DNA from: Prevotella sp.
Lineage (GTDB): Bacteria > Bacteroidota > Bacteroidia > Bacteroidales > Bacteroidaceae
DNA: 40,168 bases
Direction of reading: 5' to 3'
Assembly (NCBI GenBank): GCA_017462915.1
Contig: JAFTQG010000011.1
Coordinates: 1 to 40,168, forward strand
Shown here: positions 368-20,954 of the stretch, in pieces
Layout: every line of letters starts with the position of its first letter
Position numbering within the stretch: the stretch's first letter is position 1
Translations under genes and position numbers: made by a program
The notes under the pieces: model-generated
Databases searched by the model: none
What the model saw: the letters and a program-made list of their open reading frames with translations, nothing else
What the model was told of the DNA's origin: nothing

Positions 368-1258
368 TTATGCCCAAAGAGCATTTGTTTTCCATTTTTC
401 AGGGAATCCCATTGCACTTGTATCAATCTGAGGATATTTTGCAAGTAATTTCTTGAAACGTGAGGAAAAGGTATTGTTGGGGTTTATGGTTTGCAGAAAA
501 TATAATATGATAGATAGCATATAATATACCCTTTTTGTATCAGCGGGAATAGGTATGAAAGGCAATGTTGTACGCCTCGGCACGATGGCATTGATGCTGA
601 GTCTTCTGTTCCAAAGGCGGCTATGGTGTGCACAGATATTACGGATATAGACGATGGAGTGAAGCCATGATTCCATAACAGAGTCTGATAGACCATAGAA
701 TTTGGCTACCTGACGACGAGAATGTCCTGCATTAAGCCATTTGTACATCATTGATAATGTTCCAAATGAACTCACCTCAAATGTCATCCATGTTGGAGGG
801 AAATGGTTCGTGTAGTTGCGTGAAAACTCGGTTATGGTGTCATCATCACTTCGACGAAGCTCTTCTTGCAGCTTTCTCAATAAAAGCGAATGGCGGCCTG
901 CATCACGGAAATTTGTTGTATCTTCAAACCAGTAGATTCCGGCAGAGTTTCCCATGGTTAGAGACAGCTGTGTACGGATAGATATTTCTATTTTCTCCAA
1001 TTCAGAGCAGATTATCTTTCTGAGTTCGGAATCAAACTTATAAATGTTGTAGGCATTCTCAAATGTTGTGCCAGTTTTGAACTGTCGACTGTTCTGTTGT
1101 CTGAAAGGCTTAAGGTAGCTCTTCATCCTGAACATACTGATATTTTGCAACAGATGGTGAGCCCGTTCTTCATCTTGGAAGAATAAGCCTTCTGATTTCA
1201 AAAGGCGGATCTGTTCCTTTTCTGAAATCTGCGGTTGGTTGTAGGAGCGTGATACCAT
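368..1258 (-). CDS. Abi family protein (Abi_2/AbiD-AbiF type, HEPN-like)
   Basis: The 296-residue protein matches the Abi_2 family of abortive infection proteins in length and architecture (recognised by eye, no search run). Family-like features are an N-terminal helical region beginning SEKEQIRLLKSEGL, the segment YKFDSELRKIICSELEKIEI (about residues 73-92), and an R-x4-H motif at R206-H211 (RNICAH) inside RNICAHHSRLWNR, the signature of HEPN ribonuclease domains. From the family one would infer a single-gene phage defence toxin that cleaves RNA after infection; nothing here proves activity. There is no signal peptide. It is monocistronic, with its own promoter (1327-1358) and terminator (253-291). 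It stands alone between 63-bp direct repeats, which suggests a cassette gained independently of the neighbouring pectin locus. Confidence 0.8.
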   Translation of the reverse strand: MVSRSYNQPQISEKEQIRLLKSEGLFFQDEERAHHLLQNISMFRMKSYLKPFRQQNSRQFKTGTTFENAYNIYKFDSELRKIICSELEKIEISIRTQLSLTMGNSAGIYWFEDTTNFRDAGRHSLLLRKLQEELRRSDDDTITEFSRNYTNHFPPTWMTFEVSSFGTLSMMYKWLNAGHSRRQVAKFYGLSDSVMESWLHSIVYIRNICAHHSRLWNRRLSINAIVPRRTTLPFIPIPADTKRVYYMLSIILYFLQTINPNNTFSSRFKKLLAKYPQIDTSAMGFPEKWKTNALWA

Positions 1259-7606: not shown

Positions 7607-7614
7607 CAAAGTTA
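7607..7614 (-). promoter_or_regulatory. -7 box of the large pectate lyase gene
   Basis: The minus strand reads TAACTTTG, a perfect TAnnTTTG, about 140 nt before the start codon at 7466. No clear -33 TTTG is present at the usual distance, which would fit a regulator-dependent promoter. Confidence 0.5.
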
Positions 7615-7937: not shown

Positions 7938-8009
7938 GGCTTTGTAGTTCAATGGATAGAACAGCCCTCTCCTACAGGGCAGATCTGAGTTCGATTCTCA
8001 GCGGAGCTA
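7938..8009 (+). tRNA. tRNA-Arg (anticodon CCU)
   Basis: All four arms fold. The D stem is GTTC/GAAC. The anticodon stem is GCCCT/AGGGC around loop CTCCTAC with anticodon CCT, which reads AGG. The T stem is CTGAG/CTCAG around TTCGATT. The acceptor stem GGCTTTG/CGGAGCT includes G-U pairs, with discriminator A at 8009. CCA is not encoded. The variable loop is a short 4 nt. The gene has its own promoter and terminator, and it lies on the opposite strand to the pectin genes on either side. Confidence 0.9.
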
Positions 8010-8012
8010 CGA

Positions 8013-8339: not shown

Positions 8340-9146
8340 TTAGTTGTGAACCATCTCCACCTTGTAGAAGCCGAGGGCTCCTGCGGAAACCTGAGCAGCG
8401 AAGTTGCCGGATAACATCTTGCCACCCTTTGGAGTGAACTTGAACACTATGTTCGCTGTGTAAGCTGTTATAGCGTCATTGACACCGATGGCGTAAACAT
8501 TACCGAATCTTGAATCAACACCTATCATCTGCTCAGACGGAACAGTGACAGTCTGGGTTGCAGCGTCGTATATGCCGTCGATGGTCTTGTCGCCACCCCA
8601 GAGACCGGTGATTTCCACGTTTGTGGTGCTTCCCTGGACAAAGCGTATGTCCATAGTATAAGAGCCATTCTCCTTCTGCCATACATCATTGTTGTCAAGT
8701 TCATACTCTGTAACGGTGTATGTTCCGTCCACTGTATATGTAGGAAGTTCTGATGTCTTCACTGCGCTGACTGCGCCGACAGCTGTTCCTGCCGCGCGTG
8801 TCACGGCGTATGGGCGTACATAATATGTAGTCATCTCCTCAAGCTCGGAAACATTGACAGCGAAGGACTGTGCCACTGTTTCAGCAGGATAGCTCTCGCA
8901 TGAAGCGAAGTCTTCTGTCTCAGATACTTGGAAACCTACTTCCAGCACATTGTCTATATTGTCGACAGCTCCCGTCATGCTGATTGTCGTGATGTTCACC
9001 TGAGCTGCGGTCATAGTGACGGCAGGCTGCTCTGTTGAGGCGAAAGCGTTGTCGACATCTGCCTTTGCTCCCATCTCGTCGTCGCAGCTTGTGAGGCAAG
9101 CGAGGAATGCGAGGCAAGGCATCAAGTATAAGAATATCTTTTTCAT
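8340..9146 (-). CDS. Surface lipoprotein, SusE/F-position, possible glycan binder
   Basis: This 268-residue lipoprotein has a signal peptide with lipobox LTSC (lipid Cys at residue 21), followed by acidic DDE as in surface-exposed Bacteroidota lipoproteins. About residues 40-135 look like a fibronectin III/Ig-type fold ending in the YYVRPYAVT strand. The rest is a beta-rich domain with WQKENGSYTMDIRF and several aromatic residues. I do not recognise a named family. Its place directly after susD is that of SusE/SusF-type surface glycan-binding proteins, so binding pectic fragments at the outer membrane is an inference from context. The 133-nt gap to susD contains an imperfect hairpin (9233-9263) that could uncouple its expression from susD. 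Confidence 0.75.
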   Translation of the reverse strand: MKKIFLYLMPCLAFLACLTSCDDEMGAKADVDNAFASTEQPAVTMTAAQVNITTISMTGAVDNIDNVLEVGFQVSETEDFASCESYPAETVAQSFAVNVSELEEMTTYYVRPYAVTRAAGTAVGAVSAVKTSELPTYTVDGTYTVTEYELDNNDVWQKENGSYTMDIRFVQGSTTNVEITGLWGGDKTIDGIYDAATQTVTVPSEQMIGVDSRFGNVYAIGVNDAITAYTANIVFKFTPKGGKMLSGNFAAQVSAGALGFYKVEMVHN

Positions 9147-9279: not shown

Positions 9280-10773
9280 TTAAGGGTTCTGGTCTGCTTC
9301 ACTTATCAGAGAGTTCTCCTGTATCTCACGCAGAGGGAGCTGGAATGTCCATCTTACATCATGGGCAGGCACTACAAGCTGGCAGCCGTTCATGTGGTTC
9401 GTGCCGGCATAAGCGCGGTCGATACCCTTGTTGAGACGCTTCAGGTCGAAGTATGCGAAGCCCTCGCCCCAAAGCTCTATACGGCGCTGGAGCTGTACCT
9501 CTGCTGCTGTTACGCTTGTCTTAGACCATCCCGGCTGGCGGTTTGCCATGAGTACCTTCAGTACATCGGCAGCCTTGCCGTTCTCGTTGAGACGGGCATA
9601 AGCCTCTGCCTCGATAAGTACCATCTCTGCTGCACGCATGTAGATGTAGTCCATCAGCCAGTCGCCGCAGTTGCCGAACTTGATGTTTGCATAAGGCAGA
9701 CGCGCGGAGCTTGTAGGCTGGCTTGCATCGCCCGCTGCGCCGTTGAAGAGGCTCTTGCGGTAGTCGTTGTCAGGAATCTGGTCGTAGAGACGGCGGTCGA
9801 TATGCTTAGGGCAGTAGCCTGCGCCGGCATATCCGGGAGCAAGGTTGGAGATGTGTGAGAAGTAGCTTGCGAAGGCTGTCTGTGTCTCGGTAGTCTGGTC
9901 GAAGCCCCACATCACGTCAGGGTTGTTTATCTCCATGAAGCCGTCATGCAGGCCGCTCTCTGTACGCATAGCATATCCCTGACGGGCCTTGTTGGCAGCA
10001 TCGGCAGCGTTCTGGAACTGCTGTGTCAGGAGATAGTAGCGTGCAAGGAGGCCGTTGGCGACACTTGCGTCGATATAGTTCTTGTTAGGACGTGAGTAGT
10101 CAGCCTCCTCAAGGAGAGACACTGCCAGTTCGAGGTCATGTCCTGTCTGGTCAAGCACGGCACCTACAGTGTTACGGCTCTTGGCTGCCGCGATTTCCTC
10201 CTCGGTCTTTCCGTCAGCAGCAGTGTACATCAATGGAATACCCTTTGCCTCGCGGTTGATGGTGCCGTCGGTGTTCATATAGTCCTGATAGAGCTGTATG
10301 AGGTAGTAGTATGACATGCCGCGCATGGCGTATGCCTGTCCGATAAGTGCCTTCTCGGAAGATGTCTGTGCACCGTTAGGATAGAGGCCGATGATTTCGT
10401 TGGCCTTCTGTATCGTGGTGTAGAATGTGCTCCAGAGGTGGCCTGTTCTCATCCACTGGTCGTTACGGTAGTCGAGCTGGTAGTCGTACACGAAGAAGTG
10501 GCTTGCAGAGAATGCGATGTCCTCTGTCATGACATCTGTACACAGCATCACTGCCATGTATGAGAAGTTGGAGGGGTCGTCCTTGTTTGCCACAGTACCT
10601 TCAATGAACCATGACCACGCGCCGTTAAGGAACACGTCAGGGTTCTTTCCGGCAGCCTCTCCAGCCTCCTCAGAACCGAGGAACTCCGTATTTTCAGTGT
10701 CGAGGAAGTCTCCGCTACAAGAGGCCAGCCCGAGGGCGAGCAGAGCCGCCGGTATATATTTTGAAATCTTCAT
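9280..10773 (-). CDS. RagB/SusD family outer membrane lipoprotein (SusD-1)
   Basis: The 497-residue protein has lipobox LASC (Cys19) followed by SGDFLDTENTEF, the usual SusD start. SusD family features are the helical TPR-like segment around QAYAMRGMSYYYLIQLYQD, and the C-terminal YMRAAEMVLIEAEAYAR and LWGEGFAYFDLKR motifs. SusD-like proteins form the lid of the SusC barrel and bind oligosaccharide outside the cell. It follows susC-1 by 27 nt, and together with the lyases it most likely handles pectic oligosaccharides. Its expression would depend on the promoter in the proposed invertible segment. Confidence 0.93.
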   Translation of the reverse strand: MKISKYIPAALLALGLASCSGDFLDTENTEFLGSEEAGEAAGKNPDVFLNGAWSWFIEGTVANKDDPSNFSYMAVMLCTDVMTEDIAFSASHFFVYDYQLDYRNDQWMRTGHLWSTFYTTIQKANEIIGLYPNGAQTSSEKALIGQAYAMRGMSYYYLIQLYQDYMNTDGTINREAKGIPLMYTAADGKTEEEIAAAKSRNTVGAVLDQTGHDLELAVSLLEEADYSRPNKNYIDASVANGLLARYYLLTQQFQNAADAANKARQGYAMRTESGLHDGFMEINNPDVMWGFDQTTETQTAFASYFSHISNLAPGYAGAGYCPKHIDRRLYDQIPDNDYRKSLFNGAAGDASQPTSSARLPYANIKFGNCGDWLMDYIYMRAAEMVLIEAEAYARLNENGKAADVLKVLMANRQPGWSKTSVTAAEVQLQRRIELWGEGFAYFDLKRLNKGIDRAYAGTNHMNGCQLVVPAHDVRWTFQLPLREIQENSLISEADQNP

Positions 10774-10800: not shown

Positions 10801-13800
10801 TTAGAATGTGAGGTTCAGTCCGAAAGAGTATGAGCTCAGGGCTGAATATACGTAGCCAGTAGCGCCGCTGAAAGACTGGCGTGGGTCGAGACCCTTACGC
10901 TTTGACTGCAGCCAGATGTTGTCACCGGCGAAGTAGAAGCGCAGACGGCTGATGCCCCATTTGCGTGTTGTCTTTGCAGGGATGGTGTATCCGAGAGTCA
11001 CGTTGCGGAGGCTGAAGTATGACGCACTTGTAAGGAAGTAGTCAGAGTAGCGTGTGATGCCGCCGTCGTTTGTGTCAACCATGAGCACCGGAATGTCGGT
11101 GTTGGTGTTTGCAGGTGTCCAGCGGTTGAACATGTCCTTGTGGAGGTTGTATCCGCCACGTACACCTGAGTTCATCAATGCGGCATAGTAGTCGTCGATG
11201 ACATAGCCGCCGAGCTGGAATGCTGTAGAGACGGAGAGGTCGAAGCCGTAGCCCTCGACAGTAGTGGTGAGACCACCGACAACGTCAGGGATGGCAGACT
11301 TGCCTGTCTGACGGTATGTAGCCTCTGTAGACTGGTTGACGATGGTTACAGTCTCCACGCCGTTCTCGTCGGTAGTGTACTTGTTGTACTGTGGCAGACC
11401 TGTCTCAGGGTCAGCTCCTACATACTCGTAGAGATAGAAGTCGTAGAGTGAGCCACCGAGCTTTCTCCAGTAGTCTCCAGCCTGGTATCCGTCAGGGAAC
11501 TCGCTTGCAGGCTTTGATGCAGGGAGCTTTGTCAGCTGGTTCTTGTAGTGTGTGAGGTTGAGGGCTGCGTTCCAGCGGATATCCTTTGTCTTGATGATGT
11601 CGCCGCTGATTTCGAGCTCGATACCTGTATTCTTCATGTCCATCTCGTTGCGGAGTATCCATGCAGGAGCACCCTCGGATGTCGGGATAGGCGACTGGTA
11701 GAGCATGTCGAGAGTCTTCTTCACGAAGAAGTCGAAGTTGACATTGAGTCTGCTCCAGAGGCTTGCCTCGAAACCTACGTTGAAGTTCTGGCTCTTCTCC
11801 CATGTGAGGTCCTTGTTGCCGCGGAACACCTTTGTGAACGCTGCCGCGCCGTCTACACGGTCTACACGGTAGAGGTCAGTGTAGGCTGTCATGTATTTTG
11901 TAGAGCCTATCTGGATGTTGTCGTTACCCTGTGTACCGTAGCTGATCTTCAGCTTGAGGTTGTTGATGAAGTCAACATTCTTCAGCCAAGGCTCTTCCTT
12001 GAGTCTCCATGACGCGCCGACAGCCCAGAATGAGCCCCAGCGGTTGTCTGGATGGACGTGTGAGGAGCCGTCACGGCGGAAGCTGGCTGTGAAGTAGTAT
12101 TTGTCAGCGTAGTTGTACTCGCCCTTTGCGAAGTAGCCTTCGAGAGCGTACTCGGAAGCATCGCTTGTAAGGTTCTGATACTGTGTAGCCTGAGAGAAGT
12201 CAGGTATCTCTGACACAAAGTTTGTCATGTGACCGAGGAGATAGTCGCTGTCATCGTTCTTCGTCTCGTGGCCGAGGAGCACGTGTACGTTGTGGTCTCC
12301 GAAGTCGTGTGTCCAGTCGAGGAGCTGGTTCCAGTTTATGGCAGCGTAGCGCTGGCTCACCTGGTATCCGCGTCCGCCTACATTGGCAGCGTCGCCGCCG
12401 ATAGGTGTGGCGAACTGTGTCTGACGTGTGTTGAAGAGGTCGTATGCGAAGTTAGTAGTGAACTTGAAGTCCTTGAGGAAGTTCACCTCGAAGTATCCAC
12501 GTGCGGAGAGGTTGTCACGCAGCACACGGTTGATGTTTTTCTGTGTCGTTGCCACAGGGTTCTGCTCTGAGCCGTAAGGACGTGCATACTCTGAACCGAA
12601 GTCGTAGCGCATGTTGCCGGACTCGTCGAGCATAGGCTGGCCGTCACGGTCGTAGAGGTAGATAGGGTAGATAGGAGCGATGGACTGTGAGAACATGAAG
12701 ACGTTCTGGTATGTAGAGTTCTCGCTGCCGAATGTCTTCTGGTCTGTCCTTGAGTATGCTATGTTTGCACCCACGCGGACATACTTGCCGATGTTCTGGT
12801 CGAGCTTGAGGCGTGTGTTGAAACGGTCGAAGCCGGAGCCTGCGACATAGCCCTCGTCGTTGAGGTAGCCGAAGGATACGTATGCCTTGGTGTTCTCTGT
12901 ACCGCCGTTGATGCCGATGGTGTACTCCTGGCGCAGGCCGTTCTCGAACGGATCCTTTGTCCAGTCGTCGCCCCACTTGTATGTAGTGGCGTTAGGATTG
13001 AGCTTGCCTGTGAGAGGGTCGATGAGCTCTGTGTCGGCAACACCTGCGAACTTGTTGTATTTCAGCAGTCCGGAGATGAGGTTCTTGGCTGCATACTCGC
13101 TTGCGCCTGCCCAGCCCATCTGGCCTACGAGGCTGTTGCGGTATGCCTCGAACATCATCTCGTAGTATTCGCCTGCGTCGGTGATGACGTCGTATGTAGG
13201 CACACCACGTGTGTTGAAGCCGAGACGTGCGTCGAAGTTGATGACAGGCTTGCCTGTCTTTCCGCCCTTTGTGGTGATCATGATGACACCGTTAGAGCCG
13301 CGCGCACCGTACATTGAGTTGGCGGCAGCATCCTTGAGGATGGTGAGTGACTCTATGTCCTGAGGAGGGATAGAGTTGAGAGAGCCTTCATAAGGTGTTC
13401 CGTCGAGGACTATCAGCGGCTCGCTGGAGTTGAGGATAGAGCCGATACCGCGGACGTGTATTGACGCGCTTGAGCCAGGAGTGCCTGACGAAGCGGCAAT
13501 CTGCACGCCGGCAACGGAGCCCTCAAGGGCCTTTGATATGTTGGACACCTGGAGTTTCTCTATCTTGTCGCCCTTGACAGTGGAGGCTGAACCGGTGAAC
13601 GATGACTTCTTCTGTGTGCCGTAGGCTACGACCATGACCTCGTCAAGAGCCTGGGCGTCAGACTCGAGGGCGACTATCATGTTCTGCGAAGCCTTTACGG
13701 TCTTCGTGATCATGCCGACATAAGAGACTTCAAGGCTCTTTCCGTGGTCGACATTGATAGTAAACTGGCCGTCCATGTCCGTCACGGTGCCAGCCTTGCT

Positions 13801-13941
13801 TCCCGCAACCTTCACGGTCGCGCCGATCACAGGCTCGTTGTCCTCGGCGGACACGACAACGCCCTTGATCGCTGTCTGTGCCAGTGCCGCTCCTATGCAC
13901 AGGAACATGCTGGCAAGAATCAAAGTAAGTTTTCTTTTCAT
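10801..13941 (-). CDS. SusC/RagA family TonB-linked outer membrane transporter (SusC-1)
   Basis: I place the start at 13941 (MKRKLTLILASMFLCIGAALAQ), giving 1046 residues. The frame stays open to an ATG at 14115, but that extension has no signal peptide and would include most of the leader and the inverted repeat. Domains: signal peptide 1-22; carboxypeptidase-regulatory-like domain about 24-95 (IKGVVVSAEDNEPVIGATV); plug about 115-230 with the SusC signature VRGIGS, LDGTPYEGS and LKDAAANSMYGARGSNGVI; then a 22-strand type barrel ending LNLTF. It imports oligosaccharide with TonB energy, paired with SusD-1. A 136-bp stretch of its 5' end is identical and inverted relative to SusC-2. The promoter lies at 14095-14118, just inside the proposed invertible segment. 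Confidence 0.95.
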   Translation of the reverse strand: MKRKLTLILASMFLCIGAALAQTAIKGVVVSAEDNEPVIGATVKVAGSKAGTVTDMDGQFTINVDHGKSLEVSYVGMITKTVKASQNMIVALESDAQALDEVMVVAYGTQKKSSFTGSASTVKGDKIEKLQVSNISKALEGSVAGVQIAASSGTPGSSASIHVRGIGSILNSSEPLIVLDGTPYEGSLNSIPPQDIESLTILKDAAANSMYGARGSNGVIMITTKGGKTGKPVINFDARLGFNTRGVPTYDVITDAGEYYEMMFEAYRNSLVGQMGWAGASEYAAKNLISGLLKYNKFAGVADTELIDPLTGKLNPNATTYKWGDDWTKDPFENGLRQEYTIGINGGTENTKAYVSFGYLNDEGYVAGSGFDRFNTRLKLDQNIGKYVRVGANIAYSRTDQKTFGSENSTYQNVFMFSQSIAPIYPIYLYDRDGQPMLDESGNMRYDFGSEYARPYGSEQNPVATTQKNINRVLRDNLSARGYFEVNFLKDFKFTTNFAYDLFNTRQTQFATPIGGDAANVGGRGYQVSQRYAAINWNQLLDWTHDFGDHNVHVLLGHETKNDDSDYLLGHMTNFVSEIPDFSQATQYQNLTSDASEYALEGYFAKGEYNYADKYYFTASFRRDGSSHVHPDNRWGSFWAVGASWRLKEEPWLKNVDFINNLKLKISYGTQGNDNIQIGSTKYMTAYTDLYRVDRVDGAAAFTKVFRGNKDLTWEKSQNFNVGFEASLWSRLNVNFDFFVKKTLDMLYQSPIPTSEGAPAWILRNEMDMKNTGIELEISGDIIKTKDIRWNAALNLTHYKNQLTKLPASKPASEFPDGYQAGDYWRKLGGSLYDFYLYEYVGADPETGLPQYNKYTTDENGVETVTIVNQSTEATYRQTGKSAIPDVVGGLTTTVEGYGFDLSVSTAFQLGGYVIDDYYAALMNSGVRGGYNLHKDMFNRWTPANTNTDIPVLMVDTNDGGITRYSDYFLTSASYFSLRNVTLGYTIPAKTTRKWGISRLRFYFAGDNIWLQSKRKGLDPRQSFSGATGYVYSALSSYSFGLNLTF
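13760..13895. repeat. 136-bp perfect inverted repeat, susC-1 copy
   Basis: The reverse complement is identical over 136 bp to 16059-16194, by row-by-row comparison. It lies in the signal peptide and regulatory-domain codons of both susC genes. Weaker similarity extends on both sides (start codon to about codon 115). Such conservation, including silent sites, between two otherwise divergent genes points to gene conversion or recombination. Confidence 0.9.
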
Positions 13942-14047
13942 AAATAAAATGTTTGTTAAAAAAAATATTGTCTTTTCTGTGGCCATACCGGCTTTCCCCA
14001 CAAACCGACGGACGACCGGTAATGTCTTATGTAGTATATGCGACATG

Positions 14048-14067
14048 TGCTCCTCTGGGGCGAGAGG
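14048..14067. repeat. 20-bp inverted repeat IR-L, candidate inversion site
   Basis: The minus strand reads CCTCTCGCCCCAGAGGAGCA, identical to the plus strand at 15888-15907. The bases immediately outside and inside differ between copies, so the identity stops abruptly. The site has internal dyad symmetry (CCTCT/AGAGG around a 6-nt centre), as recombinase core sites often do. It lies in the susC-1 leader between promoter and start codon. Confidence 0.8.
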
Positions 14068-14094
14068 TGCACACTTAATCGACACATTAGGATG

Positions 14095-14118
14095 CAAAGT
14101 TAACAATATTTTCACAAA
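14095..14118 (-). promoter_or_regulatory. Promoter of susC-1 (movable promoter)
   Basis: On the minus strand TTTG (14118-14115), a 12-nt spacer and TAACTTTG (14102-14095) form a 24-nt block. It differs at one base from the block at 20878-20901 upstream of susC-3. The -7 box matches the consensus; the TTTG is closer than the usual 20 nt, so the true -33 contact may be elsewhere. The -7 box is followed after 27 nt by IR-L. Confidence 0.7.
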
Positions 14119-14232
14119 GAAATGTATTTCTTATATAAATATTGTGCACGTGGAGCTGTTTCCTTTACATAAATCAAGTAATATGAGCTTTACGTTAATG
14201 CTTTTCAGCAAAAATGCGCGAAACAGTTACAA

Positions 14233-14254
14233 TTTGTCGCCTTATCCCGACAAA
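14233..14254. promoter_or_regulatory. Dyad upstream of the susC-1 promoter, possible operator
   Basis: TTTGTCG (14233-14239) and CGACAAA (14248-14254) form perfect 7-bp arms separated by 8 nt, about 130 bp upstream of the -7 box. A regulator site that would travel with the promoter on inversion is possible. The evidence is the symmetry and position only. Confidence 0.3.
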
Positions 14255-14304
14255 AGTTCTGAGATTGGAATTTTGGATGATGTGCCAAGTCGGAAAGTTG
14301 TTCT

Positions 14305-14441
14305 GGTGGTTTAGGAGGTAGGGGATTATAGGTTATAGCCGAAATAGCTATTATAGCCGAAATAGAAGCTAAAAACCAAACGACCAAGCCACTAAACGAC
14401 TAAACCACCAAACGACTAAACGACCAAACAACCAAACCACC
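14305..14441. repeat. Palindromic intergenic repeat, copy B (variant)
   Basis: A short left arm GGTGGTTTAGGAGG, a centre with TTATAGCCGAAATAGC units, and a long right arm of units such as AAACGACTAAACCACC. The arms carry AAACGACC/AAACCACC in place of the AACCGCC of other copies. This is the most divergent family member. Confidence 0.65.
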
Positions 14442-14448
14442 AATATAG

Positions 14449-14501
14449 GGGTCACCCTTTATTGTGTGAAACGTAACATTTTGCATGGTGAAAGGTGACC
14501 C
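14449..14501 (-). terminator. GTCACC inverted repeats downstream of the recombinase
   Basis: GGGTCACC (14449-14456) pairs with GGTGACCC (14494-14501), and a third GTCACCTTTT occurs at 14518-14527. It may end recombinase transcripts, which run toward it, or susC-1-region transcription. Similar GGTCAC/GTGACC pairs recur at 34573-34608. The stretch 14502-14696 has no convincing gene. Confidence 0.4.
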
Positions 14502-14696
14502 TTTGCTTTACAAAACGTCACCTTTTAGTTTGTGCCCGATACATTTGGCATTCCGTTTCGGTCATAGAGTCTTTTATTAACTCGGATTTCTCGGAACACC
14601 CCTGCTGGTGTGGCGAGATGCTTCGCCTGGGTTTTATGTAACCTGCGGTGAGACATTGCGGTATGACGGCGCGATTTGCTTGCATGACTTGCACAT

Positions 14697-15659
14697 TCAG
14701 CGTCCCATGGCATCAGCCACGGCGTTTGCCACAGTGATGCTGTCGCGCATCATCTCGTCATCGGGGATACGGGCGAGGTATATCTCAGTGGTCTTGATGT
14801 TGGTGTGCCCGAGAGCCTGCGAGATATGGTGAAGGCTTACTCCCGAGGTGTTTGCCAGCGAAGCCCATGTGTGGCGCGCGACGTATGATGTTATGTTGCC
14901 GGGCAGTCCTGCCGCGACGGAGAGACGGTGCAGTGCGCGGTTGTAGCGTGTGATGCTGTTGTGGTATGTCTGCCATCCGCAGTCCGCGGAGGGCAGTATG
15001 GGGAAGAGCAGTCCGCAGGGAGAGCTCCCGCGGTAGCGTTGTATTATCTCGCGCATCTCGGGAAGCAGCGGCACGGATATCCTCTGCGATGTCTTGCGTC
15101 TGCGGTAGACTATCGTGTCGCCTGAGATATTGTCGTGGGAGAGGCGCGCGAGGTCGGCAAACGGTATGCCGAGGCCGAGGAAAGAGAAGAGGAACACGTC
15201 ATGCCACAGGCGCAGCGGTGTCCCCGCGTGAGGCGTGTTGGCTATGAACCGCGCCATCATCTCCGCGCTCACGGCCCGTTTCCGTGTCCGTTCGTTGCCC
15301 GTAAACGCTCCGGCGAACGGGTTGTCGGTTTCGGGGAAAGTCCTTTTGTACAGGGAGCGCAGGGAGCGCAGGTAACATGATGAGGTGTTGCGCCTTATGC
15401 CTCTCTGCGACAGCCATTGCTGGTAGCTTGTCATCGTGGCGGCAGTCATGCGACTGTCATTGCCGTGCTCACGGCAGAAGACCGCGAACGAGCGCAAGGC
15501 CGTGTTGTAATTGGTGACGGTGGACTTGCTTACGCTGCCTGAGACTGTGGCGGCAGCATCGTTTGCAGACAGTAGAAACTGGCTGACGGTGGGCATCTCC
15601 GTGTGGGCTTTCTGCTTCCTGCCGAAAGAGAAGCTCAGTGAAAAATCGAACATTACCAT
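14697..15659 (-). CDS. Tyrosine recombinase (site-specific integrase/invertase)
   Basis: I place the start at 15659, giving 320 residues, because the in-frame ATG at 15719 lies upstream of the -7 box; 15653 is an equally possible start. The N-terminal SAM-like core-binding domain is about residues 25-115 and the catalytic domain about 130-310. Catalytic landmarks are K189 (YRRRKTSQ), R262 (SYVARHTWAS), H285 (ALGHTNIKTT) and the nucleophile Y294 (EIYLAR). The Arg I position, RGMSF in many Bacteroidales enzymes (aligned from memory), is L163 here (FSFLGLGIPFADLA). The CTnDOT integrase also lacks Arg I, so activity is not excluded. There is no N-terminal arm-binding extension, which fits a simple invertase. 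It lies within its presumed substrate. Confidence 0.88.
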   Translation of the reverse strand: MVMFDFSLSFSFGRKQKAHTEMPTVSQFLLSANDAAATVSGSVSKSTVTNYNTALRSFAVFCREHGNDSRMTAATMTSYQQWLSQRGIRRNTSSCYLRSLRSLYKRTFPETDNPFAGAFTGNERTRKRAVSAEMMARFIANTPHAGTPLRLWHDVFLFSFLGLGIPFADLARLSHDNISGDTIVYRRRKTSQRISVPLLPEMREIIQRYRGSSPCGLLFPILPSADCGWQTYHNSITRYNRALHRLSVAAGLPGNITSYVARHTWASLANTSGVSLHHISQALGHTNIKTTEIYLARIPDDEMMRDSITVANAVADAMGR

Positions 15660-15703
15660 AATTAGAAAAGATGTTTGTTGTAAAATAAGCATTGGATTTC
15701 CTG

Positions 15704-15731
15704 TGCAAAGATAATGCAAACCGAACGCAAT
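15704..15731 (-). promoter_or_regulatory. Promoter of the recombinase gene, shared 28-bp cassette
   Basis: On the minus strand ATTGCGTTCGGTTTGC runs into ATTATCTTTGCA, giving -7 box TATCTTTG (15713-15706). The 28 bp match, with one mismatch, the promoter unit repeated at 32049-32076 and 32115-32142 before the M6 protease gene. The chosen start codon is about 47 nt downstream. Confidence 0.65.
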
Positions 15732-15756
15732 GGAGCAGGAAGCAGGTAGGCTTTTT

Positions 15757-15880
15757 GCGGTTGTGTGCGGTTGGGCGGTTTATAGAAGCAATAGCCGTAA
15801 TAGCCGTAATAGAAGCTATAGATATTATAGCATATACCGCCCAACCGCCCAACCGCCTAACCGTACAACCGCCTAACCGC
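15757..15880. repeat. Palindromic intergenic repeat, copy C
   Basis: The left arm is GCGGTTGTGTGCGGTTGGGC and the right arm is built from CCGCCCAACCGCCCAACC and CCGCCTAACCG units. Between them are ATAGCCGTA 9-mers and decayed ATAG units. The 28-nt centre AATAGAAGCTATAGATATTATAGCATA is essentially the same as in copy A. It abuts IR-R. Confidence 0.75.
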
Positions 15881-15887
15881 ATGTCTT

Positions 15888-15907
15888 CCTCTCGCCCCAG
15901 AGGAGCA
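15888..15907. repeat. 20-bp inverted repeat IR-R, candidate inversion site
   Basis: CCTCTCGCCCCAGAGGAGCA on the plus strand is the perfect partner of IR-L. It lies 105 nt before the susC-2 start codon, the same leader position as IR-L before susC-1 (106 nt). A TATAAT at 15929-15934 is not a Bacteroidota-type promoter. No TAnnTTTG faces susC-2 between here and 15660. Confidence 0.8.
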
Positions 15908-16012
15908 TCGGCTGTCAGATATACATTATATAATATATATAGGCTGTAGTGCAATGGATATGTGTCACGGCCGCAGAAGAAAGAAAACATTTTCCAACAA
16001 ACGTTTTTATTT

Positions 16013-19000
16013 ATGAAAAGAAAACTTACTTTAATTCTTGCCAGTATGCTTCTTTGCGTAGGAGCGGCACTGGCACAGACAGCGATCAAGGGCGTTGTCG
16101 TGTCCGCCGAGGACAACGAGCCTGTGATCGGCGCGACCGTGAAGGTTGCGGGAAGCAAGGCTGGCACCGTGACGGACATGGACGGCCAGTTTACAATCAA
16201 TGTCGAGCGTGGTACACACCTTGAGGTGTCATACGTCGGCATGATCACGAAGACCGTAAAGGCTTCACAGAACATGAAGATAGCCCTCGAGTCTGACGCC
16301 CAGGCCCTTGACGAGGTGATGGTCGTGGCTTACGGCACGGCGAAGAAGTCCACATTTACCGGTGCGGCAGGTGTGATGAAGGATAAGGATTTCTCGGCTC
16401 AGAAGACATCTGTGGTGAAATCTCTTGAGGGAAAGATGGCAGGCGTGAAGATAGGTGCTTCGACCGGAGACCCGGGTTCAGACCAGCAGGTGCTCATCCG
16501 CGGCATCGGCTCCATAAGCGGTTCTACACAGCCTCTGTATGTCGTTGACGGCGTGCCTGTTGTCAACGACGACATGTCAAACGGCAACCTCCGTTCCCAG
16601 TCTGTACTTTCCTCCCTGAACCCCAACGACATAGAGAGCATGACAGTGCTGAAGGACGCTGCCGCATCCTCGCTCTACGGTTCGCGTGCGGCCAACGGTG
16701 TCATCATCATCACCACCAAGAAGGGCAATGTAGGCAAGACCTCCGTCAGCTACGAGATGCAGATGGGCTGGAGCGAGATAGCCAAGAAGAGTGCCATGGA
16801 GATGATGTCGTCGGCAGAGCTGAAGCAGTATTACCCGGATGCCATCCAGGGATATTTCGAGGCATACTATGACCTGCCGTCCGATATGGCGGCCGCAGAG
16901 GCAGCCGCAGAGGTGAGGAACGGATGGTTCTACGACTATGACTCTGACGAGACTACCGACTGGTACAAGGAAGTGTACCACAAGGGTTTCACTACCGACC
17001 ATCAGGTGTCCATCAACGGCGGCAATGACAATACGAAGTTCTATGCCAGCTTCGGCTACAACAAGGTCAACGGTGTCGTGAAAGGCAGCTCGTTCGACCG
17101 TTACAGTGGACGTCTCAACATAGACCACAAGGTGAACAGCTGGTTCAAGTTCTCCGCCAAGCAGATGCTCTCGTTCACAGACCAGAAAGGCTTCCGTGAC
17201 CAGAACAACCAGGAGCAGGGCTTCGGCACCACGGCGCCGATGTCCATCCTCTTCTGCATGGACCCTACCGCTCCCAACAGACTTGAGGACGGCTCGTACA
17301 ATCCTAACGCTTCGTTCTCTCCGACAATCTCCAACCCTAACCTCATCCTCGGACAGGAGACGGGCACTTATGCCGAGACGCTCGATTCGGAACTTATGCG
17401 CAGCATGACGAATGTCGAGGGAGAGATAAAGCTCCCGTTCGACCTTACGCTGCGTTCAATCTTCGGTTTCGACTATATGAGCAACAATATGCGTGAGTTC
17501 TGGGCTCCTGAGAGCGTGAACGGCGCATCGCTCAGCGGCATGGGACAGCGCTGGCAGTACACGAACAAGACTCTCACCTCGTCAACGACGCTGGGTTACA
17601 TGAAGTCGTTCGGCCAGCACAACCTCAACGCCCTGGTGGGTTTCGAGGCAGAGAAGCGTAACCTCCTGTACCTCACGTCACAGTCGCATTCTTACTCTAC
17701 CGACAAGCTCCCGGAGCTCTCCAACGGACAGAACTCCAACGGCGGCAGTGCCACCTATGATGCCAACATGCTGTCATGGCTCGGAAACATCAACTACAAC
17801 TATGCCGACAGGTACTATCTCTCGGCAAGTTTCCGCCGAGACGGCTCTTCACGCCTTTCCGCCGAGAACCGTTGGGCGAACTTCTTCTCCATCTCCGGCG
17901 CATGGCGTATCAGCGGAGAGAAGTTCCTTGAGGGCAATGACCTTTTCAGCGACCTAAAGATACGTATGTCTTACGGTACCAACGGCAATCTTCCTGCCGA
18001 CTACTACGGATACATGGGCACATACTCCACGACCGGCGGCTACGGCTCCGCTCCCGGCATATTCTGGAGCAATATAAGCAATCCTAAGCTCGGCTGGGAG
18101 AAGTCCAACAACTTCAATGTCGGTCTCGAGTGGCGTCTCTATAACCGTGTCACCCTGACCGTCGACTATTACAACAAGCTCACCAAGGATCTCCTCTTCG
18201 AGATGCCGGTGTCTTACCCTACAGGCTTCTCCAGCTACTGGAACAATATCGGCGAGCTGAAGAACACTGGCCTGGAGTTCTCTGTCAATTCACATAACAT
18301 CACGACAAAGGACTTCAGCTGGACCACCGATTTCAACATCACAAGACAGTCGATAAAGGTCAACAAGCTGCCTGGCGGCGACGACGTGCAGTATGGCGAC
18401 GGCAATATGTATCTCCTCCGTGAAGGCGAGTCGATGCACACGTTCTATCTCCCGTTGGCAAAGGGCGTGAACCCTGACAACGGCCTTATGGAGTTCTACA
18501 TCGACCCGGAAGACCCTGAGAAAGGTGTCACGAACTATTATTCAGAGGCAGGCAAGACCATCGTCGGCAAGGGTGTGCCAGACTGGATTGGCGGCATGAC
18601 AAACACGTTCCGTTACAAGGACTTCGACCTCTCGTTCATGATTTCCTACCAGTTCGGCGGAGACCTGTTCGACTATCCCGGCTACTTCCTGAAGTATTCC
18701 GACGGTCTCCGTGTCGGCAGTTTCAACGTGCAGAAGGCAGTTGCCGGCAACTACTGGCAGAAGCCTGGCGATGTATGCGAGTATCCGCGTCCGATATACG
18801 GCAACCCATACCGTTCGGACAAGTTCTCCTCACGCGAGATCATCTCTACCGACAATATCCGTGTCCGCGACATCACCATCGGATGGAACGTGCCGTATCT
18901 GAAGAAGTATCTCAGCAACCTGCGCGTGTATTTCCGTGCGACGAACCCGTTCCTGATATACAGCGCGTCTGACGATATAGACCCGGATGTGGACATTAAC

Positions 19001-19066
19001 GGCTACCGACAGACCGATACGCCTGCCCTCCGCCAGTATATGTTCGGCCTCAATCTGACATTTTAA
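16013..19066 (+). CDS. SusC/RagA family TonB-linked outer membrane transporter (SusC-2)
   Basis: The start at 16013 gives 1017 residues beginning MKRKLTLILASMLLCVGAALAQ; an in-frame ATG at 15962 would add 17 residues and disrupt the signal peptide. The regulatory-like domain (about 24-95) is almost the same as in SusC-1. From about residue 115 the plug (VRGIGSISG, VVDGVPVVND, LKDAAASSLYGSRAANGVI) and barrel diverge strongly, ending MFGLNLTF. It should therefore import a different oligosaccharide with SusD-2. No enzyme gene follows in the operon. As sequenced there is no recognisable promoter in the upstream 350 nt, so I infer the gene is silent or poorly expressed in this orientation of the 14048-15907 segment. 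Confidence 0.95.
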   Translation: MKRKLTLILASMLLCVGAALAQTAIKGVVVSAEDNEPVIGATVKVAGSKAGTVTDMDGQFTINVERGTHLEVSYVGMITKTVKASQNMKIALESDAQALDEVMVVAYGTAKKSTFTGAAGVMKDKDFSAQKTSVVKSLEGKMAGVKIGASTGDPGSDQQVLIRGIGSISGSTQPLYVVDGVPVVNDDMSNGNLRSQSVLSSLNPNDIESMTVLKDAAASSLYGSRAANGVIIITTKKGNVGKTSVSYEMQMGWSEIAKKSAMEMMSSAELKQYYPDAIQGYFEAYYDLPSDMAAAEAAAEVRNGWFYDYDSDETTDWYKEVYHKGFTTDHQVSINGGNDNTKFYASFGYNKVNGVVKGSSFDRYSGRLNIDHKVNSWFKFSAKQMLSFTDQKGFRDQNNQEQGFGTTAPMSILFCMDPTAPNRLEDGSYNPNASFSPTISNPNLILGQETGTYAETLDSELMRSMTNVEGEIKLPFDLTLRSIFGFDYMSNNMREFWAPESVNGASLSGMGQRWQYTNKTLTSSTTLGYMKSFGQHNLNALVGFEAEKRNLLYLTSQSHSYSTDKLPELSNGQNSNGGSATYDANMLSWLGNINYNYADRYYLSASFRRDGSSRLSAENRWANFFSISGAWRISGEKFLEGNDLFSDLKIRMSYGTNGNLPADYYGYMGTYSTTGGYGSAPGIFWSNISNPKLGWEKSNNFNVGLEWRLYNRVTLTVDYYNKLTKDLLFEMPVSYPTGFSSYWNNIGELKNTGLEFSVNSHNITTKDFSWTTDFNITRQSIKVNKLPGGDDVQYGDGNMYLLREGESMHTFYLPLAKGVNPDNGLMEFYIDPEDPEKGVTNYYSEAGKTIVGKGVPDWIGGMTNTFRYKDFDLSFMISYQFGGDLFDYPGYFLKYSDGLRVGSFNVQKAVAGNYWQKPGDVCEYPRPIYGNPYRSDKFSSREIISTDNIRVRDITIGWNVPYLKKYLSNLRVYFRATNPFLIYSASDDIDPDVDINGYRQTDTPALRQYMFGLNLTF
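16059..16194. repeat. 136-bp perfect inverted repeat, susC-2 copy
   Basis: This is the partner of 13760-13895. The two copies lie in inverted orientation about 2.2 kb apart around the recombinase segment, so RecA-dependent recombination between them could also invert the interval. Confidence 0.9.
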
Positions 19067-19094: not shown

Positions 19095-20528
19095 ATGAAA
19101 AAGATAATTTTCTCATTTGGTCTGGCGATGAGCCTCGGCCTCACATCATGCAGCGACTTCCTTGACAAGGAGCCGTCAACGGAACTCCCGTCAAACGGAG
19201 CCATAACCTCTGTCGCCGATCTTGAGAATGCTGTTAACGGACTGTGCTATGTCCTTATCGAGAGCGCAAGCGGACGCATGAACTATGCCTCGGAGTTCGG
19301 ACTGTATGGCGATATCAGGTGCAACGACTTCGTCAATATCGGCCGCAACGGACAGACAGAGCTGATAAGCCAGTATACCAACCATGCCACAGACTATCCT
19401 TCCGAATATCCTTACTATACTTTCTATGCTGCCCTTGCCAACGCCAACAACGCTCTGGAAAGCATAGAGAACGGCAGTGTGGAGGGAGATGCCGTGGAGG
19501 TGGACAACTACAAGGGACAGTTCCTCACATGGCGTGCCATGATGCACTTCGACCTTGCACGCATATACTGCAAGATACCTGCCACGGTGGATAATCCTGC
19601 CGACGAGCTGGGCCTCGTCATCTCCGACCGCGTGTTCCCTACCGATTACAAGGGACTCCGCGCAGACCTGAAGACCACATACGATGATATCATCGGATGG
19701 CTCAGCGAAGCTATCCCCATGCTTGCCGAAGACAATGGCACAGGATATATCAACCAGGCTACGGCTCTGGCTCTCCGTGCCCGTGCCTATCTGTATACAG
19801 GCCAGTATGGCTTGGCTCTCCAGGATGCCAGGAATGTCATCGACAACTATGGCTACGAGCTGCTCACTGTCTCCAACTATGTCTCTTCATGGGGTAAGGA
19901 AGACCAAGACGAGAGCATCTTCGAACTTCTGATTACCGAGAAGTACAATCCGCAGCGTTACGGTCTCGGCTACTATACAGACGCTTCAGGATATGCCGAG
20001 TGTGCCTTCAATGTCGACGGCTATCTCTTCAAGTATCTCTCGTCTCATCCCGAGGATGTGCGTTCAGGACTTGTAAAGGACCAGACCGCGGCAAAGAATT
20101 CCGGCTACTATCCTGCCAAGTATCCCGGACGTGACGGCAGCATCTATGTGAATAATCCGAAGCTCGTGCGTCTCTCCGAGATGTATCTCATCGCCGCCGA
20201 GGCTCAATGGCATCTTGACAATCCGTCGGCAGACATCAATGTCAATGCTGTGAGCGCAGACGCCGCTGCATACATCAACGACATCAACCGCAACCGCATC
20301 ACCGGCTACACGGATGTCGCCGAGGTCTCCCTTGCCGATATCCTGCACGCCTGGGAGATAGAGATGTTCTGCGAGAACCAGATTACCTATGCCTACTGGC
20401 GCAACAAGCAGAGCGTGACAAGCACTGTCGGGCAGGAAATCACATACGACGATTATCGTGTGCTGCAGCCTATCCCGCAGAGGGAGATTGACTATAACAA
20501 GGATCTGCAGCAGAATGACAGATACTGA
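19095..20528 (+). CDS. RagB/SusD family outer membrane lipoprotein (SusD-2)
   Basis: The 477-residue protein has lipobox LTSC (Cys19) followed by SDFLDKEPSTELP, a standard SusD opening. Family features are FLTWRAMMHFDLARIYC (helical core) and the C-terminal LVRLSEMYLIAAEAQW and HAWEIEMFCENQITYAYWR segments. It begins 28 nt after susC-2, clearly the same operon, and should supply the substrate-binding lid. A terminator at 20633-20672 ends the unit after only two genes, so degradation of its substrate must rely on enzymes encoded elsewhere, perhaps the pectate lyases of the opposite operon (inference). Confidence 0.93.
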   Translation: MKKIIFSFGLAMSLGLTSCSDFLDKEPSTELPSNGAITSVADLENAVNGLCYVLIESASGRMNYASEFGLYGDIRCNDFVNIGRNGQTELISQYTNHATDYPSEYPYYTFYAALANANNALESIENGSVEGDAVEVDNYKGQFLTWRAMMHFDLARIYCKIPATVDNPADELGLVISDRVFPTDYKGLRADLKTTYDDIIGWLSEAIPMLAEDNGTGYINQATALALRARAYLYTGQYGLALQDARNVIDNYGYELLTVSNYVSSWGKEDQDESIFELLITEKYNPQRYGLGYYTDASGYAECAFNVDGYLFKYLSSHPEDVRSGLVKDQTAAKNSGYYPAKYPGRDGSIYVNNPKLVRLSEMYLIAAEAQWHLDNPSADINVNAVSADAAAYINDINRNRITGYTDVAEVSLADILHAWEIEMFCENQITYAYWRNKQSVTSTVGQEITYDDYRVLQPIPQREIDYNKDLQQNDRY

Positions 20529-20672: not shown

Positions 20673-20877
20673 ACTTGCGGAATGTACCGTGAGGGCGGGA
20701 AAGTTACGCGATGTTTCCGCGGAGTATCAATCTTAAAACTTTTGTTTGATTAATGCAGGAAAATGTAACATTTTCGTACATTTTTATGAAAAAACATAAC
20801 TTTTGTGTCAATTCCACTTGATTTAGATAAAGTAAACGGGCATTTTGTATACAATAATTTATATAAGACATGTATTG

Positions 20878-20901
20878 TTTGTAAAAATATTGTTAACTTT
20901 G
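20878..20901 (+). promoter_or_regulatory. Promoter of the susC-3 operon
   Basis: TTTG (20878-20881), 12 nt and TAACTTTG (20894-20901) match the susC-1 promoter block at 23 of 24 positions. The leader to the start codon at 21231 is long, about 320 nt. Confidence 0.7.
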
Positions 20902-20937
20902 TGCCCTGTATATATAGCGGTAAAGTGTCTCGGTAAT

Positions 20938-20954
20938 CCTCTCGTCGCGAGGGG
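20938..20954 (+). promoter_or_regulatory. Leader hairpin of susC-3, related to the inversion sites
   Basis: CCTCTCG-TCG-CGAGGGG can form a 7-bp hairpin 37 nt after the -7 box. Its first seven bases and place in the leader resemble IR-L and IR-R, but the second half differs. It may be a regulatory RNA hairpin common to these susC leaders, or a diverged recombination site. The rest of the leader (20955-21230) shows no other element I can name. Confidence 0.45.

What the first reader, a model, noticed from the sequence alone, without database searches (positions are those of the whole stretch)
14048..15907. Recombinase-carrying invertible promoter between two divergent SusC/SusD operons
The sequence shows perfect 20-bp inverted repeats (CCTCTCGCCCCAGAGGAGCA) at matching positions in the leaders of two divergent susC genes, 106 and 105 nt from the start codons, with abrupt loss of identity on both sides. 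The segment between them holds a tyrosine recombinase and, at its left end, the only TAnnTTTG promoter that faces either gene. susC-2 has no such promoter in 350 nt. Inversion would hand the promoter from susC-1/SusD-1 and its lipoprotein to susC-2/SusD-2. Invertible capsule promoters and recombinase-linked susC loci are known in Bacteroides. An either/or importer switch with the recombinase inside the flipping segment, next to pectate lyases, would be a distinct design.
Basis: partly seen in the sequence, partly recalled or inferred. Interest (0 to 1): 0.88.

Follow-up and report, generated by a model that had tools for sequence, protein, structure and literature searches.

The report
Self-flipping promoter between two importers
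A bacterium of the Prevotella group carries a short DNA segment that holds one promoter and the enzyme that probably flips it, placed between two nutrient-importer operons so that only one is likely to be on at a time; the same arrangement is seen in related species, with matching importers found at the switched-on end in some and the switched-off end in others.

Summary
The 20-bp inverted repeats occur only twice in the genome, in the leaders of two divergent susC genes, and enclose a tyrosine recombinase plus one outward TAnnTTTG promoter. I collected 19 same-genus loci with a recombinase between paired sites (18 with susC clearly on both sides). An outward promoter lies within 60 nt of the repeat at exactly one end in 18 of 19. 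Most sites share palindromic arms (CCTC…GAGG); centres match within a pair and differ between loci (0 of 105 comparisons identical, 15 loci). Orthologous susC genes sit at the promoter end in some genomes and the promoter-less end in others: susC-1 is ON here, OFF in G060 (97% identical). In G259 and G232 the same two operons flank the segment in opposite orientations, one breakpoint inside the repeat, the other about 20 nt outside. Best explanation: an either/or SusC/SusD switch flipped by its own recombinase. Not shown: inversion within one population, or transcription. Of 33 recombinase loci first read, 16 did not show the full arrangement. The pectin link is weak. A new variant of the known Bacteroidales tyrosine-recombinase invertons.

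The parts
14048..14067 (-). left inverted repeat / recombination site, core CCTC-TCGCCCCA-GAGG read outward
15888..15907 (+). right inverted repeat / recombination site, identical core and centre
14068..15887 (.). predicted invertible segment (1860 bp with the repeats)
   Evidence: by analogy with the G259/G232 inversion
14095..14102 (-). TAACTTTG, -7 element of the single near outward promoter, 35 nt inside the left repeat; now faces susC-1
   Evidence: consensus match
14697..15653 (-). tyrosine recombinase, 318 aa (start inferred from relatives; longest ORF begins at 15719)
15706..15713 (-). TATCTTTG, probable promoter of the recombinase itself, inside the segment so unaffected by flipping
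   Evidence: consensus match only
10801..13941 (-). susC-1, 1046 aa, predicted ON in the orientation assembled
   Evidence: TIGR04056, 793 bits; promoter
9280..10773 (-). susD-1 (PF14322, PF07980)
8340..9146 (-).
16013..19066 (+). susC-2, 1017 aa, predicted OFF in the orientation assembled
   Evidence: TIGR04056, 828 bits; no facing TAnnTTTG within 350 nt
19095..20528 (+). susD-2 (PF14322, PF07980)
13586..13949 (-). 5' end of susC-1, 90% identical (inverted) to 16005-16368 of susC-2; N-terminal 105 aa 92% identical against 34% for the rest
16005..16368 (+). 5' end of susC-2, partner of the above
20728..20952 (+). second, apparently static copy of the promoter end (TAACTTTG 20894-20901) followed by a third site-like palindrome CCTCTCGTCGCGAGG (20938-20952), in front of the next susC (21231)

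Best explanation
An either/or phase-variation switch. A 1.86-kb segment bounded by two identical tyrosine-recombinase sites carries its own recombinase and one outward promoter. The recombinase pairs the two inverted sites and exchanges strands at the shared centre, which flips the segment. In one orientation the promoter drives susC-1/susD-1 and the small gene behind them; in the other it drives susC-2/susD-2. It cannot drive both in one chromosome, so a clone would split into two importer types. Shown from sequence: repeats, sites, single near promoter, recombinase, recurrence, orthologs in both states, opposite segment orientation between the same operons in two species. Inferred: that this recombinase acts on these sites, that inversion is current, and that the promoter is the main one for each operon.
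For: Unique perfect repeat pair. 19 loci with paired sites around a recombinase: outward TAnnTTTG within 60 nt of the repeat at exactly one end in 18 of 19 (15 at the recombinase-3' end, 3 at the 5' end), at both in 1; about 0.05 per end expected from resampled sequence. Site arms conserved in most loci, centres identical within pairs and not between loci (0 of 105 comparisons over 15 loci): what a tyrosine recombinase needs of its overlap region (established knowledge). susC-1 ON here against OFF in G060, 97% identical. Mx1-operon susC: promoter present in G037, absent in G095 at 95% identity. G259/G232: flanks 83-85% identical (one outer stretch 77%) on one relative strand, segment on the other. 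Shared 14-mers: operon bodies 452+647 opposite-strand against 11+8 same-strand; segment 13 same-strand, 0 opposite. Among the best 30 relatives of the Mx1-operon susC, 23 of 24 without a site have a TAnnTTTG within 260 nt, against 3 of 6 with a site.
Against: No read, PCR or RNA data. The window/G060 comparison is not a clean flip: relative to the outer anchors the segment keeps its orientation, while the susC-1 operon changed side and the partner operon differs. In G259/G232 the segment is more diverged than its flanks (recombinases 63% identical, flanking SusC 90-92%), so a replacement segment in the other orientation is not excluded; the 14-mers of leader and N-terminal stretches there are mixed (36/25 and 44/22 opposite/same). 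Of the 33 recombinase loci, 16 did not show the full arrangement. G144 has one site and no divergent susC in the 20 kb read; G035 shows one site only; G218 and G374 have divergent susC without a detected site pair. The recombinase family lacks the canonical first catalytic Arg, so activity is assumed.
Confidence: 0.86

Rival explanations
1. A fossil or near-fossil switch: the locus once inverted, but in this species the orientation is now fixed and susC-1 is simply the expressed copy.
For: G144 looks like such an end state, with one site, one promoter, an open recombinase frame and no divergent partner in the 20 kb read. Only one orientation is assembled here.
Against: Both sites are still identical over 20 bp although the leader sequence next to them has diverged, and the recombinase frame is open with its integrase domain above Pfam's cut-off.
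Confidence: 0.12
2. Inversion is driven mainly by homologous recombination between the ~360-nt 90%-identical susC 5' ends, not by the recombinase at the 20-bp sites.
For: Long inverted homology encloses the segment; leaders are alike within several loci, nearly identical in G060.
Against: In G259/G232 one blastn flank match ends inside the site pair and the other about 20 nt outside it, not deep inside susC. Conserved site arms with pair-identical centres have no reason to exist under this model.
Confidence: 0.06
3. The segment is a mobile cassette that inserts between divergent operons in either orientation; orientation differences between species reflect separate insertions or replacements rather than flipping.
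For: The segment diverges faster than its flanks; partner operons differ between close relatives; G037 and G035 carry a 99% identical susC beside quite different recombinase regions.
Against: Pair-identical inverted site centres and a promoter at exactly one end in 18 of 19 loci are what an inverting switch needs.
Confidence: 0.1

Closest known systems
B. fragilis Tsr19/BF2766 local invertible promoter (PMC4747536, passages seen)
   Same: Tyrosine recombinase gene near an IR-flanked TAnnTTTG promoter that it inverts; ON/OFF control of a surface operon.
   Different: There the recombinase lies near the segment and also inverts a distant promoter; the target is an EPS operon (ON/OFF). Here the recombinase lies inside the segment, the site pair is unique in the genome, and two divergent susC/D operons share the promoter.
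B. fragilis Tsr0667 SusC/SusD shufflon (as described in PMC4747536 and PMC11852207, passages; the 2009 paper itself is not held)
   Same: Recombinase varies SusC/SusD outer membrane proteins by inversion.
   Different: Described as shufflon-type multiple inversions at three SusC/SusD clusters and nine other regions; here a two-site, two-state promoter handover with a local recombinase.
Invertible regions in or near SusC/SusD systems of gut Bacteroidales (PMC10939037, passages seen)
   Same: Orientation differences near SusC/SusD-like systems, found from metagenomes of IBD cohorts.
   Different: The passages seen do not describe a recombinase inside the segment or a promoter shared by two divergent operons; its Table S1 was not seen.
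Mpi/FinA capsule promoter inversions of B. fragilis (PMC4747536, PMC12632263, PMC3090145, passages seen)
   Same: Invertible Bacteroidales promoters controlling surface molecules.
   Different: Mpi is a serine recombinase acting globally on many promoters; here a local tyrosine recombinase.
Salmonella Hin switch (recalled)
   Same: Recombinase gene inside the segment that it inverts, with an outward promoter.
   Different: Hin is a serine recombinase and the promoter drives one operon whose product represses the other; here the promoter itself is handed between two divergent operons.

Membership tests
Invertible promoter (inverton) of Bacteroidales | inverted repeats flank an outward promoter upstream of a gene | tested here: met
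   (promoter by consensus)
Invertible promoter (inverton) of Bacteroidales | both orientations occur in one population | not testable with these tools
   no reads; one genome per species. Between species: opposite orientation in G259/G232
Invertible promoter (inverton) of Bacteroidales | transcription depends on orientation | not testable with these tools
   only consensus promoters; indirect support
Tyrosine site-specific recombinase (Tsr-like) | PF00589 catalytic domain with SAM-like N-terminal domain | tested here: met
Tyrosine site-specific recombinase (Tsr-like) | canonical catalytic set R-K-H-R-H-Y (recalled) | tested here: inconclusive
   K187, R260, H283 invariant in 8 sequences, Tyr at 292. 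In the alignment the first Arg column falls on Pro164 and the His before the second Arg on Tyr257. Recalled: other Bacteroidetes integrases also lack the first Arg.
SusC/SusD shufflon (Tsr0667 type) | several sites that shuffle multiple genes | tested here: not met
   only two copies of the site at <=3 mismatches; a third palindrome at 20938 has a different centre
Hin-type switch (works like, not a member) | serine recombinase inside the inverted segment | tested here: not met
   recombinase is inside, but of the tyrosine class

The most novel reading that the evidence does not exclude
A Prevotella-group family of self-contained promoter-handover cassettes that works as an expression site for nutrient importers. 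One promoter-plus-recombinase segment serves two divergent susC/D operons. Whole operons are exchanged at its two ends over evolution (susC-2/D-2 here, the Mx1-peptidase operon in G060), and the leader and N-terminal domain of the two SusC proteins tend to be homogenised within a locus, so that any new importer is plugged into the same 5' socket and comes under either/or control.
Probability: 0.38. Interest if true: 0.75.

Novelty: new variant of a known kind. Interest (0 to 1): 0.63.

Why it matters
SusC/SusD pairs decide which nutrients a Bacteroidales cell can import and are exposed at the surface. A switch that makes two importers mutually exclusive, with its invertase on board, would split a clone into two importer types without a dedicated regulator. 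Its recurrence in the genus makes it testable by read mapping in existing metagenomes, and the site rule (conserved arms, pair-specific centre) gives a way to find more.

Tried and rejected
Considered and rejected: (1) chance repeat, made very unlikely by recurrence. (2) The repeat as a mere part of homologous leaders: the leaders diverge between the repeat and the last ~30 nt in the window, although in G060 and some others they are alike throughout. (3) Multi-site shufflon: only two sites in the genome. (4) Pectin-utilisation switch: the lyase gene nearest the switch has its own TAACTTTG at 7614(-), and the lyase block stays put in G060 next to another operon. (5) A second apparent same-pair flip, G335/G040: dropped, because in G040 the promoter lies at the recombinase-5' end, so the ON operon is the same in both. 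(6) G037/G035 as a flip: the susC is 99% identical but the recombinase regions are unlike and G035 shows one site only, so it shows a promoter lost or absent, not a flip.

Results against or limiting: one search gave loci for 30 of its 55 matches; with 3 I read 33. Fifteen had paired sites between two susC genes; longer flanks added G232 and G213. The other 16: 9 with no susC within 1.5 kb (not extended; three near contig ends), 2 with divergent susC but no site pair (G218; G374, which has a 64-nt repeat over start codon and leader), and 5 with susC on one side (G144 and G035 extended without success; G023, G100, G112 not extended). G037 and G241 were added because they bore sites, so 19 is not an unbiased sample. 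Control for the N-terminal homogenisation: within-locus median 68% (21 pairs) against 52% for unrelated pairs between loci (864), but only 6 of 21 exceed every unrelated comparison, so this is a tendency; I lowered the novel-case odds from 0.45 to 0.38 for it. susC-2 has no relative at E<=1e-60 in G060, G125, G144 or G692 (0 of 4). The search for related loci gave two relatives. Stretches of G020, G103, G221 were fetched and not analysed. Ten paper searches (at most 20 listed each) showed no title or abstract start that describes this arrangement; the primary papers on Tsr0667 and on metagenome invertons are not held, so absence from print is not claimed.

Full report
OBSERVATION. The window is the whole of contig C36 of a 2.93-Mb, 59-contig genome (contig length). 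The repeats are as described: 14048-14067 and 15888-15907, 20 nt, perfect, and no other site within 3 mismatches in the genome. They lie 106 and 105 nt before the ATGs of two divergent susC genes at 13941(-) and 16013(+), both TIGR04056 members, each followed by susD. Between the repeats lies a 318-aa tyrosine recombinase (PF00589). A TAACTTTG at 14102(-), 35 nt inside the left repeat, faces susC-1; TATCTTTG at 15713(-) lies in front of the recombinase. The only + strand match, 14540, is about 1.5 kb from susC-2 and antisense to the recombinase.

RELATIVES OF THE RECOMBINASE. In 398 genomes of the genus, 51 have a match at E<=1e-50 and 4 at E<=1e-75, own genome included. A family sample of 399 had 3 at E<=1e-58: the own genome, G692 (74%) and G469 (45%). 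I read 33 loci, mostly with 1.5-kb flanks: 15 have an exact inverted repeat with a site in the leaders between two divergent susC genes. G232 and G213 joined after longer flanks were read; G037 and G241 were added because they bore sites. That makes 19. In one of the 19 (G073) the second susC runs into a contig end (31 residues seen). The other 16 of the 33 did not show the arrangement: 9 with no susC within 1.5 kb, 5 with susC on one side, 2 (G218, G374) with divergent susC but no site pair; 12 of these 16 were not read further out.

ONE PROMOTER PER SEGMENT. In 18 of 19 loci an outward TAnnTTTG lies within 60 nt of the repeat at exactly one end (15 at the recombinase-3' end; G390, G040 and G241 at the 5' end); G692 has one at both. 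About 0.05 per end is expected from first-order resampling. With a wider look of 110 nt, G390 too has matches at both ends and a second, nested site. One promoter end is the feature an either/or switch requires.

SITES. The repeats share a palindromic frame, (A)CCTC - 7 or 8 nt - GAGG(T), in most loci. For 15 loci the centres are all different, 0 of 105 comparisons identical, while the two centres within a locus are the same, since they lie inside exact repeats. Left out: G051 (near-identical to G296) and G692, G324, G335, whose cores depart from the frame; G125 was kept although one arm reads GAAG. Conserved arms with a pair-specific centre are what one expects of tyrosine-recombinase binding arms and overlap region (established knowledge of the class).

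BOTH STATES IN NATURE. (a) susC-1 is at the promoter end here and at the promoter-less end in G060 (97% identical). Of 259 genomes, 6 have a close susC-1 relative: the window with site and promoter; G060 and G213 with a site and no promoter within 300 nt; G221 and G103 with a TAnnTTTG and no site or recombinase in view; G020 with a recombinase pointing away, but its predicted start was not a start codon, so it is not counted. (b) A susC of an Mx1-peptidase operon, with relatives in 208 of 329 genomes; of the best 30 loci read, 24 have no CCTC..GAGG site and 23 of these have a TAnnTTTG within 260 nt; of the 6 with a site, 3 have the promoter and 3 do not. Two of the 30 had an uncertain start. 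G037 (promoter) and G095 (no promoter), both with paired sites, are 95% identical past residue 115. (c) G259 and G232 have the same two flanking operons (SusC 90% and 92% identical past residue 115). blastn pairs their flanks on opposite strands (L088 2175-7131 with L089 15795-10837; 8292-13040 and 13142-13940 with 8080-2468) but the segment on the same strand. Shared 14-mers agree: 452 and 647 opposite-strand in the operon bodies against 11 and 8 same-strand; 13 same-strand against 0 in the segment; mixed in the leader and N-terminal stretches, where the two susC resemble each other (36/25 and 44/22). One breakpoint falls inside the site pair, the other about 20 nt outside it. Caveat: the segment is more diverged than the flanks (recombinases 63%), so replacement in the other orientation is not excluded.

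WINDOW AGAINST G060. Relative to the outer anchors (pectate lyases plus tRNA-Arg 7938-8010; and the susC at 21231) the segment has the same orientation in both, but the susC-1/susD-1/small-gene operon stands on the left here and on the right there, inverted, and the other operon is different: susC-2/susD-2 here, the Mx1 operon there. susC-2 has no relative at E<=1e-60 in G060. So the switch state differs between the two species, but more than one simple flip lies between them. Operon exchange at the ends of the segment seems to be part of its history.

5' ENDS. The first 105 residues of the two SusC proteins are 92% identical in the window against 34% for the rest; in the other 20 loci compared the N-terminal value (43-96%) also exceeds the rest (26-60%). 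N-termini are more conserved anyway: unrelated pairs between loci have a median of 52% (864 pairs), within-locus pairs 68% (21), and 6 of 21 exceed every unrelated comparison of their members. Orthologs between species show the reverse, N-terminal lower than the rest in 12 of 13 pairs, for example G060/G241 with 51% against 92%. This suggests exchange between the two 5' ends in some loci, by gene conversion or on capture of a new operon. It leaves homologous recombination as an additional route of inversion.

LITERATURE. Passages seen in PMC4747536 describe Tsr19/BF2766 (local and distant promoter inversion) and Tsr0667 (shufflon-type inversions of SusC/SusD clusters); PMC10939037 reports orientation differences in or near SusC/SusD systems. 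PMC11852207, PMC12632263, PMC10994844, PMC8748976, PMC3090145 and PMC12118408 were also seen in passages only. None of those passages describes a recombinase-bearing segment that hands one promoter between two divergent susC operons. The primary 2009 and 2019 papers were not held.

VERDICT. A phase-variation switch of a known kind (tyrosine-recombinase inverton of Bacteroidales) in a new arrangement: recombinase inside, one promoter shared by two divergent importer operons, recurrent in the genus. Inversion in a living population and its effect on transcription are inferred.

Noticed in passing
window 20728-20952: A second copy of the segment's promoter end with a third site-like palindrome (different centre) in front of the next susC (21231); the stretch before the G060 ortholog does not align to it. 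Perhaps a relic of an older switch or a possible third recombination partner.
   Followed up: partly
L014:8081-10400 (G060): The G060 segment is enlarged to 3.66 kb; it holds a 177-aa ORF without Pfam match among many 27-28-nt repeats in both orientations.
   Followed up: partly
L015 (G144): Recombinase, promoter and a single site in front of one susC, no divergent partner in the 20 kb read: looks like a locked switch.
   Followed up: partly
window 13586-13949 and 16005-16368: Near-identical 5' ends of two otherwise unlike SusC genes; a tendency to the same in other loci.
   Followed up: yes
window 14697-15653: By the profile alignment the recombinase family has Pro where the first catalytic Arg of a XerC-like structure stands and Tyr in place of the His before the second Arg.
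   Followed up: partly
L047 (G390) 10859 and 10897: Two nested sites at one end of the segment, with TAnnTTTG matches inside both ends.
   Followed up: no
window 368-1258: Abi_2 family protein (PF07751, E=1e-53) near the pectate lyases.
   Followed up: no
   Followed up: no
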